From an uncultured Pelagibacteraceae bacterium (GTDB lineage: Bacteria > Pseudomonadota > Alphaproteobacteria > Pelagibacterales > Pelagibacteraceae), in the NCBI GenBank assembly GCA_902533075.1, contig CACAKN010000002.1:1-64000 (forward strand): a stretch of DNA of 64,000 nucleotides, given 5' to 3'. Position numbers and translations under genes: made by a program. Below, piece after piece: positions 8,439 to 33,496 of the stretch. Under the pieces are notes generated by a model, which had not been told where the DNA came from, did not search any database, and saw only the letters and a list, made by a program, of their open reading frames with translations. Position 1 is the stretch's first letter, and each line of letters starts with the position of its first letter.

Positions 8439-8501
8439 AATTCCTTTATATTTGAAAAAAAACAATAATGCATTTTTTTTGAGATCTGTTATATTAGTTT
8501 T

Positions 8502-8557
8502 GATAGTCCTTCTTAGCCATCTTTAGCTCCCGGTTTTTAAGGACTATCTTTTTTTTT
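8502..8557 (+). terminator. 10-bp stem-loop followed by T9 (intrinsic terminator/attenuator or short sRNA)
   Basis: GATAGTCCTT (8502-8511) pairs perfectly with AAGGACTATC (8539-8548), followed by TTTTTTTTT (8549-8557) abutting ATG 8558. Confidence 0.75.
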
Positions 8558-9172
8558 ATGCTCCCTCTGGATTTCATCCTTTTTTTGCAAATAATAATTT
8601 TTTTATTTATTACACCAGGTACCCCAAGGATTGTTATTATTTCTTACTCAATGAATTATGGAGTCCAAAAATGCGCTTGGACAGCATTTGGTGATATTAC
8701 AGCTAACTTTATTCAAGCTACTTTAGTAATTTTTGTTTTAGGTACTTTTTTTTCAGATAATCCTACTTTCTTAAGTATTATTAAATGGATTGGAGTAATA
8801 TTTTTACTTTATTTAGCTTACGATGTTTATAAATCATCACCTAAAGAATTAAATTCTGAAATAATCACTTCAAAAAGTTTTTTTTCTTTTTTTAAAGATG
8901 GTTTTTTAGTTGCAGGAACAAGTCCAAAGGCCTGGTTGTTTTTTCCTTTAATATTCCCGCAATTTATCGATTTTAATTCAAATTATGTGGTTCAATTTTT
9001 TATTTTGATAACTACTTATGTCGTTTTAGATTTTTTATCTTTAATAGGTTACGCTTTACTTGCGCAAAAATTAATTTTGTGGATAAAAGCTAATCCAAAA
9101 ACAATTAATACAATCTCTGCGAGTGTTTTAGTTTTAATTGCCATAATAATTATTATTACACAACAATATTAA
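8558..9172 (+). CDS. LysE family translocator
   Basis: FITPGTPRIVIISYSMNYGVQ..; ~6 TM LysE/RhtB fold. Confidence 0.85.
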   Translation: MLPLDFILFLQIIIFLFITPGTPRIVIISYSMNYGVQKCAWTAFGDITANFIQATLVIFVLGTFFSDNPTFLSIIKWIGVIFLLYLAYDVYKSSPKELNSEIITSKSFFSFFKDGFLVAGTSPKAWLFFPLIFPQFIDFNSNYVVQFFILITTYVVLDFLSLIGYALLAQKLILWIKANPKTINTISASVLVLIAIIIIITQQY

Positions 9173-22448: not shown

Positions 22449-22520
22449 ATGAAATATATTATTACAGGTGCTGCAATTGCTTGGGCTTTATATATGGCCG
22501 ATAAATATTTATTTTTTTAA
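22449..22520 (+). CDS. Putative 23-aa membrane microprotein MKYIITGAAIAWALYMADKYLFF
   Basis: ATG 22449 to TAA 22520, 5 nt after the livM-like stop; single hydrophobic segment. Confidence 0.35.
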   Translation: MKYIITGAAIAWALYMADKYLFF

Positions 22521-22581
22521 AATTTTTATTACAACCACAGATTTAGAGTTATACACTTTTTTACACATCAAAGAATTAATC

Positions 22582-22609
22582 TTGAAAATTTAATCTTAAT
22601 AATTAAATA
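22582..22609 (+). promoter_or_regulatory. Putative sigma70-type promoter for the structured RNA
   Basis: TTGAAA (22582-22587), 16-nt spacer, TAAATA (22604-22609); predicted start ~22615-22617 coincides with the first stem. Confidence 0.5.
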
Positions 22610-22615
22610 AGTTAC

Positions 22616-22826
22616 ATACCTTAACTAACCTAAAAGAGAGAGCAAGGTATAAACTAGAAAGGATGCTGTTTGGCAAGGCAAACAGCGTGACCGCAATAAT
22701 TGGGAAATATATATTGGGCGGTCTTATCTTCCAATCTTTTAGCACCAGATTGGCAGTAATTATGATTAAAAAAAACAGCTGCTAATTAAGATAGTGGTGC
22801 TAGGGAACTGACCAACCTTTGGTCAT
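22616..22826 (+). ncRNA. Candidate structured RNA (or structured 5' leader) upstream of an HNH-nuclease gene
   Basis: Perfect stems 22616-22622/22644-22650, 22665-22672/22679-22686, 22689-22694/22718-22723, 22731-22736/22748-22753, 22809-22815/22819-22825; apparent pseudoknot 22740-22747/22795-22802; locally high GC. Confidence 0.75.
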
Positions 22827-22839
22827 AAGGAGGATACAT

Positions 22840-23262
22840 ATGTCGTTAGAAAATAATGACGCTCACTTTTTAGTAAGAGCTAAAAAGATTTTAAGAACAA
22901 ATGAGTGGCTACCAATACTAAACCACTTTTATAATCAAAAGACTCAAGCCTTTATGGATAATAATTTTGATAAAGTTTCAGATTATATTTATTGGGGACA
23001 TTTGATTGCTAATGCGATTGATTATGATCAGTATAGACAATCTCATCATTGGAAAGATCTTAGAACAAGAACTTTAGATAAATATAAAAACTGCATTGTT
23101 TGTTCTAGACCATCTGAGGATATGCATCATAATAGATATCATGGTGTTTTATTCAAGGAACAAGTTGGTGTTGATGTTGTTGCAATGTGTAGATGCTGCC
23201 ACACTAAGTTTCATAATGATAATAAAGTTGCAAATTATTATGAATTAAAAAGAACCAATTAA
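22840..23262 (+). CDS. Small HNH-endonuclease-domain protein (140 aa)
   Basis: CIVC..DMHHNRYHGVLFKEQVGVDVVAMCRCCHTKFHN zinc-ribbon HNH motif; strong SD AAGGAGG at 22827-22833. Confidence 0.85.
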   Translation: MSLENNDAHFLVRAKKILRTNEWLPILNHFYNQKTQAFMDNNFDKVSDYIYWGHLIANAIDYDQYRQSHHWKDLRTRTLDKYKNCIVCSRPSEDMHHNRYHGVLFKEQVGVDVVAMCRCCHTKFHNDNKVANYYELKRTN

Positions 23263-23299
23263 CAAAAAAAAACCCCAGCGAATTTCTTCGCTGGGGTTT
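23262..23299 (-). terminator. Intrinsic terminator, best T-tract on the minus strand (for the SBP gene); hairpin also downstream of the HNH gene
   Basis: AAACCCCAGCGAA-tttc-TTCGCTGGGGTTT, 13-bp stem; minus-strand readout continues into T9. Confidence 0.9.
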
Positions 23300-23312
23300 A
23301 AAATATTAAATA

Positions 23313-33306: not shown

Positions 33307-33333
33307 CTTTTTTCCATACATATAAGAATATCC

Positions 33334-33496
33334 TGCCACGGGAGAGACTACAGAATATCGTAGCGCCGAAGGAGCAACCACCCAGGAATCTCTCAGGCAA
33401 AAAGGACCGTAACATATTAACTCTGGAAAGAGATTTAATTCTCGCCGAAGGAGCAAAACTCTCAGGCAAATATACAGATGGGTACAAAGAGTTAAT
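33334..33496 (+). promoter_or_regulatory. Tandem glycine riboswitch upstream of gcvT
   Basis: Two glycine-aptamer cores: GGGAGAG..GCGCCGAAGGAGCAA..CTCTCAGGCAAAAAGGACCG and CTCTGGAAAGAG..CGCCGAAGGAGCAA..CTCTCAGGCAAATATACAGATGGG. Confidence 0.95.

What the first reader, a model, noticed from the sequence alone, without database searches (positions are those of the whole stretch)
22582..23262. Structured RNA + small HNH nuclease module between a liv permease operon and its likely binding protein
An intergenic segment has a plausible promoter (TTGAAA-N16-TAAATA), then about 210 nt of visibly higher GC with five perfect hairpins and a pseudoknot, then a strong SD and a 140-aa HNH-domain ORF. The RNA starts where the promoter predicts. 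This is more structure than a simple leader needs, and it recalls RNA-guided-nuclease ancestors (HEARO/omegaRNA with IscB). However, the ORF has no visible RuvC or PLMP segment, so it is not a recognisable IscB/IsrB. It could be an HNH-linked ncRNA, a cis-regulator of the nuclease, or a nuclease-mobilised RNA element. Computational work on 'Ca. Pelagibacter ubique' and marine metagenomes has described several orphan structured RNAs (e.g. SAR11_0636-, IMES-type motifs), so the RNA itself may already have a motif name even if its function is unknown.
Basis: partly seen in the sequence, partly recalled or inferred. Interest (0 to 1): 0.85.

Follow-up and report, generated by a model that had tools for sequence, protein, structure and literature searches.

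The report
Pseudoknot-leader HNH nuclease cassette in SAR11
A tiny DNA-cutting-enzyme gene, headed by an elaborately folded RNA that probably hides its ribosome-binding site, sits in one gap between genes and turns up patchily in unrelated Pelagibacter lineages; it works like phage homing-endonuclease cassettes, but with an RNA leader that is absent from Rfam.

Summary
A conserved promoter, a strongly folded ~224-nt leader and a 140-aa HNH ORF occupy 22521-23262. Three independent copies (this genome, L066, L072), all at the same site, show that the RNA is real: stem C, an H-type pseudoknot (S1+S2) and stem E pair in 78/78 cells, with five double-compensatory changes. No Rfam family matches.

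The RNA is not a member of HEARO/omegaRNA: there is no RuvC or PLMP and no HEARO match. The unit is a cassette. Most relatives lack it, the small-ORF stop abutting the terminator. Its carriers are scattered on the host tree (AU p=5e-5), its terminator travels with it, the HNH is under purifying selection (dN/dS ~0.15), and one genome keeps a deleted remnant.

Best explanation: a free-standing, homing-type HNH gene spreading by allelic recombination into a variable convergent spacer. Its leader would be a cis-acting translational switch. The Shine-Dalgarno is buried in a helix in all three copies, in three registers; opening it costs more than in shuffles (1, 0 and 8 of 100 as high), and the helix competes with pseudoknot stem S1.

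Shown: structure, linkage, patchy allelic distribution, selection. Inferred: switching, homing, nuclease activity. A trans-acting RNP is not excluded.

The parts
22449..22520 (+). 23-aa ORF MKYIITGAAIAWALYMADKYLFF, conserved after livM in all relatives examined; its stop marks the left edge of the variable site
22521..22581 (.). Element-specific, highly conserved upstream block (94-98% identical in three copies, with the leader only 65-72%); no RNA fold; possible operator or upstream activator DNA
   Evidence: dnaN similarity rejected
22582..22609 (+). Promoter TTGAAA-N16-TAAATA, hexamers and spacing kept in three copies; resembles a Pelagibacter rnpB promoter (L077)
22616..22650 (+). Hairpin A AUACCUU/AAGGUAU; re-formed with other letters in L066 (AUAACCU/AGGGUUAU); absent in L072
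22663..22688 (+). Hairpin B AUGCUGUUUG/CAAACAGCGU, loop GCAAGG; re-formed in L066 with GCAAG kept; absent in L072
22689..22723 (+). Stem C GACCGC/GCGGUC (GAUCGC/GCGAUC in the other copies)
22725..22732 (+). Anti-Shine-Dalgarno strand UAUCUUCC, pairs with GGAGGAUA 22829-22836; register differs in L066 and L072
22731..22753 (+). Pseudoknot stem S1 CCAAUC (22731-22736)/GAUUGG (22748-22753), invariant, overlaps the anti-SD strand
22740..22802 (+). Pseudoknot stem S2 UAGCACCA (22740-22747)/UGGUGCUA (22795-22802); UGGCAGAA/UUCUGCCA in L072; A-rich loop between
22809..22825 (+). Hairpin E UGACCAA/UUGGUCA, loop ACCU kept
22829..22833 (+). Shine-Dalgarno GGAGG
22840..23262 (+). 140-aa HNH protein: helical N-terminal region plus CxxC-HH-CxxCH-H zinc HNH domain; dN/dS about 0.15
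23264..23311 (.). Convergent terminator spacer that travels with the cassette (W-L072 90%, W-L074 85%, nearest empty hosts 50-56%)

Best explanation
A mobile, free-standing (homing-type) HNH endonuclease cassette. It occupies the convergent spacer between the liv permease operon and the livK-type gene, and spreads between Pelagibacter lineages by recombination through the conserved flanking genes, with or without help from cutting by the nuclease. Its own promoter makes an mRNA with a ~224-nt structured leader. In the OFF fold, the strand around UAUCUUCCAAUCU pairs with the Shine-Dalgarno and closes a three-way junction with stems S2 and E. In the alternative fold, the same strand (CCAAUC) pairs with GAUUGG to make the H-type pseudoknot, which frees the Shine-Dalgarno. 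The leader would thus hold nuclease translation low and conditional. Shown: RNA structure, linkage, purifying selection, patchy allelic distribution, co-travelling terminator. Inferred: switching, its trigger, nuclease activity, homing.
For: Covariation: 78/78 cells paired, 5 double-compensatory changes, 2/500 shuffles as high, slid controls 22-41% paired. SD burial: opening cost 6.9, 7.4 and 4.9 kcal against shuffled 2.3, 2.4 and 3.7, with 1, 0 and 8 of 100 shuffles as high; helices of 8, 9 and 11 bp in different registers. Conserved promoter. Empty sites and other cargo at the same place. Copies at the same site in L066 and L072 and a remnant in L074. Carriers not a clade on livM, AU p=5e-5. 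HNH dS between W and L066 is 0.46 against livM 1.01, while W-L072 is 0.81 against 0.55. Terminator co-transfer. Purifying selection on HNH. Precedent: T4-type free-standing HNH/GIY-YIG genes in intergenic sites with structures that sequester the RBS (PMC2988022).
Against: Only three copies carry the RNA. The anti-SD helix alone is weak when only the SD flanks are randomised (p 0.45, 0.18, 0.008). Hairpins A and B, in two of three copies, are more than simple SD hiding needs. The nearest HNH relatives (24-33% identity) lack this leader. No cleavage target is known, and ordinary recombination of cargo would give the same distribution. The AF2 model of the HNH part has low confidence.
Confidence: 0.52

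Rival explanations
1. Trans-acting RNP: the pseudoknotted RNA is a ncRNA cofactor or guide bound by the minimal HNH protein, working like omegaRNA with IscB although unrelated to it.
For: RNA directly upstream of and linked to a nuclease in all three copies; large structure with a pseudoknot and fast-changing hairpins; L3 loop keeps an A-run that resembles the A-rich empty site, but this is low complexity.
Against: No RuvC or PLMP, 140 aa, no HEARO match. No terminator between RNA and ORF, and the SD lies inside the fold. HNH relatives exist without the RNA. No variable guide segment identified.
Confidence: 0.14
2. Riboswitch proper: the leader binds a small molecule or ion and controls HNH translation, independent of any selfish role.
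For: Invariant S1, L1, A-rich loop and AGGKAA next to a helix that buries the SD; pseudoknot riboswitches close to start codons (the methionine-associated motif later called SAM-V) occur in this organism group (PMC2704228).
Against: One gene family at one locus only, in 3 of 399 genomes; no metabolic gene attached; no similarity to a known aptamer.
Confidence: 0.14
3. Passive cargo: the gene (for example defence) is swapped into a permissive convergent spacer by ordinary homologous recombination; the nuclease does not promote its own spread and the leader is just its regulator.
For: Other, unrelated genes occupy the same spot in other genomes; the whole spacer including the terminator is replaced.
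Against: HNH relatives also sit at another convergent junction (folD/argG in L002, L003); remnant formation (L074) fits invasion and degeneration; no defence family match beyond weak HNH hits.
Confidence: 0.17

Closest known systems
Free-standing homing endonucleases of T4-like phages (mobE, segB) and I-TevI with RBS-sequestering RNA structures (PMC2988022)
   Same: Small HNH/GIY-YIG gene in an intergenic site, patchy allelic presence, RNA structure predicted to hide the ribosome-binding site
   Different: Host is a bacterial chromosome; leader is far larger, with a pseudoknot, a three-way junction and extra 5' hairpins; has its own promoter; no cleavage shown
HEARO / omegaRNA with IscB or IsrB (PMC9755519)
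   Same: Structured RNA directly upstream of an ORF with an HNH domain
   Different: No RuvC, no PLMP, 140 aa, no HEARO model match, SD part of the fold, no transposon copies elsewhere
Pseudoknot cis-regulatory RNAs of SAR11 (rpsB motif, SAM-V; PMC2704228)
   Same: Leader RNAs with pseudoknots in this organism group; [quoted passage not shown]
   Different: Different sequence and topology; linked to a nuclease gene, not metabolism; not in Rfam 15
Cas5-HNH (PDB 8yb6) HNH domain
   Same: Nearest solved HNH zinc domain by sequence profile (E 3e-9)
   Different: Only about 62 residues align; no Cas5 part, no Cascade

Membership tests
HEARO/IscB/IsrB | RuvC and PLMP domains in the protein | tested here: not met
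   140-aa ORF, only weak HNH/zinc matches in Pfam and NCBIfam
HEARO/IscB/IsrB | RNA matches the HEARO covariance model | tested here: not met
   No match to the window RNA at E<=10 or to L066/L072 at E<=1
HEARO/IscB/IsrB | RNA guides DNA cleavage in trans | not testable with these tools
   needs biochemistry
Free-standing homing endonuclease | Homing-type nuclease domain | tested here: met
   HNH zinc motif intact, profile match E 3e-9 to a solved HNH; the usual N is D, as in the closest relatives L002 and L003
Free-standing homing endonuclease | Intergenic, with occupied and empty alleles at one fixed site | tested here: met
Free-standing homing endonuclease | Spread between lineages rather than vertical descent | tested here: met
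   AU p=5e-5, dS conflict, terminator co-transfer
Free-standing homing endonuclease | Cuts the empty allele or its neighbourhood and gives biased inheritance | not testable with these tools
   needs cleavage and cross assays
SD-sequestering translational leader | Conserved helix burying the SD, with a competing fold | tested here: met
   weaker; prediction only
Riboswitch | Specific ligand binding | not testable with these tools
   needs in-line probing or similar
Group I intron | P3-P7 catalytic core (Rfam intron model) | tested here: not met
   No Rfam intron match at E<=10
Known SAR11 motifs (SAR11_0636, rhtB, IMES) | Covariance model match | tested here: not met

The most novel reading that the evidence does not exclude
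A new, minimal RNA-protein nuclease system: a ~210-nt pseudoknotted RNA acts in trans with a stand-alone 140-aa HNH protein to find or cut DNA and to home into an intergenic site, independently of the IscB/Cas9 lineage.
Probability: 0.1. Interest if true: 0.9.

Novelty: new variant of a known kind. Interest (0 to 1): 0.6.

Why it matters
It documents an RNA structure absent from Rfam 15, supported by compensatory changes, that is tied to a spreading nuclease cassette in one of the most abundant bacterial groups on Earth. Selfish nuclease genes must keep expression low; phages use simple hairpins, and here a streamlined bacterium carries what looks like a pseudoknot-based switch. It gives a testable case of how homing-type genes persist in small genomes, and a direct test (cis leader or trans RNP) of whether RNA-assisted HNH systems exist outside IscB/Cas9.

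Tried and rejected
1. Rfam identity: none within 22600-22840 at E<=10, none at the RNA in L066/L072.
2. Similarity of block 22522-22588 to dnaN coding DNA (BLAST E 1e-8 in one genome): a profile of eight dnaN genes scores it no better than background; rejected.
3. Short DNA matches of the RNA in relatives: chance, in argG, tRNA flanks and the like.
4. CM hit in G299 (28 bits, E 0.0096 per genome over 399 genomes): chance.
5. Viral origin: no relative in IMG/VR by the window protein, A5, HNH DNA pattern, RNA core pattern or block pattern; only weak HNH-domain matches in phages; none in plasmids.
6. HNH structure: AF2 pLDDT 63 with most of the HNH region near or under 50; not used for a fold search.
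7. Anti-SD helix test with randomised SD flanks only is weak; the opening-cost test is stronger.
8. Profile-based collection searches with A1 failed because no stretch was conserved enough.

Full report
OBSERVATION. The window lies in a SAR11 (Pelagibacter-type) genome, 970 kb in 37 contigs. At 22582-22609 there is TTGAAA-N16-TAAATA, followed by a leader and a 140-aa ORF from ATG 22840 to 23262, with SD GGAGG at 22829-22833. The leader folds at z = -4.94, and Rfam has nothing there even at E<=10. The rhtB and glycine motifs found elsewhere in the window show that the search works.

COPIES. The first searches found no DNA relative of the RNA in 297 relatives and HNH relatives at only 24-33% identity. 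Wider searches found the same unit at the same site in SAG AG-899-J03 (L066, the same contig as L073; contig ends inside the HNH gene) and in G302 (L072, complete). G474 (L074) has a remnant: the left end is joined to the last HNH codons, next to the same terminator. A covariance model found no further copy in 399 genus genomes, and two further searches of 250 genomes each, overlapping the earlier sets, added none.

RNA STRUCTURE. Aligning the three cores gives 26 pairs, all 78 cells paired, and five pairs changed on both sides. Only 2 of 500 shuffles reach these values, and sliding the partners by 1-3 columns drops pairing to 22-41%. The change in S2 is the clearest: UAGCACCA/UGGUGCUA in two copies, UGGCAGAA/UUCUGCCA in the third. 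S1 (CCAAUC/GAUUGG), the short L1, the A-rich loop and AGGKAA are nearly invariant, so S1 itself has no covariation support. Hairpins A and B are re-formed with different letters in L066, with loop GCAAG kept, but are missing in L072. The core is therefore stem C, the pseudoknot, stem E and the SD.

SD CONTROL. In each minimum-energy fold the SD closes a three-way junction with the strand just 5' of, or overlapping, S1. The helix has 8, 9 or 11 pairs in three registers. The cost of opening the SD is 6.9, 7.4 and 4.9 kcal against shuffled means of 2.3, 2.4 and 3.7; 1, 0 and 8 of 100 shuffles are as high. A narrower test that randomises only the SD flanks is weak. S1 and the anti-SD helix share nucleotides, which suggests a two-state switch. 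That step is inference.

CASSETTE. In most of the 29 close relatives read, the stop of a conserved 23-aa ORF after livM abuts the terminator; others carry unrelated genes there. Carriers do not form a clade on livM (AU p=5e-5; window plus L072 p=0.005), and L066 is 98% identical in livM to an empty genome. HNH dS is 0.46 for W-L066 where livM gives 1.01, but 0.81 for W-L072 where livM gives 0.55, so the element's history is not the host's. The terminator spacer of W is 90% and 85% identical to the carriers L072 and L074 but only 50-56% to its closest empty hosts. The whole spacer therefore appears to be exchanged through the flanking genes. HNH dN/dS is about 0.15, and the HNH domain is nearly invariant.

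UPSTREAM BLOCK. 22521-22581 is the most conserved part (94-98%), does not fold and is specific to the element. It is probably regulatory DNA; its role is unknown. An apparent dnaN similarity did not survive a profile test.

INTERPRETATION. The closest working analogue is the free-standing homing endonuclease gene of T4-like phages, where RNA structures hide the ribosome-binding site (PMC2988022). This unit meets the testable features of that kind, but cutting and biased inheritance cannot be tested here. It is not a HEARO/IscB member. A trans-acting RNP remains possible because the RNA is larger than SD hiding requires.

Noticed in passing
window 22449-22520: 23-aa ORF (MKYIITGAAIAWALYMADKYLFF) directly after livM, almost invariant in the other 32 loci read; a probable unannotated small membrane protein of the liv operon.
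   Followed up: partly
window 22521-23311 and the same place in L039, L046-L049, L052, L054, L056, L057, L059: The convergent spacer is a hotspot: empty in most genomes, but in others it holds an MFS-like transporter, another membrane protein, a recurring ~250-bp insert with a ~53-aa ORF (read by eye), or small membrane proteins.
   Followed up: partly
L048, downstream of the small ORF: A different candidate mobile nuclease at the same site: a 347-aa protein with treble-clef zinc-finger repeats (DUF4379, E 1e-12) and a CapR homology domain.
   Followed up: partly
window 22521-22581: Element-specific noncoding DNA, 94-98% identical between copies whose leaders are only 65-72% identical; holds TACAC repeats about 11 bp apart; function unexplained.
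   Followed up: partly
L002 1480-1947, L003 1474-1944: Distant HNH relatives sit between convergent folD and argG, a junction with no HNH gene in L011, preceded by an ATATTAACA...TGTTAATAT palindrome instead of the RNA.
   Followed up: partly
L077 274-314: Promoter of a Pelagibacter RNase P RNA gene resembles the cassette promoter (CTTGAAAATTTAAT...), a possible stable-RNA promoter type.
   Followed up: no
window 8484-8566 and 33329-33419: rhtB sRNA motif and a glycine riboswitch aptamer, both known families.
   Followed up: no
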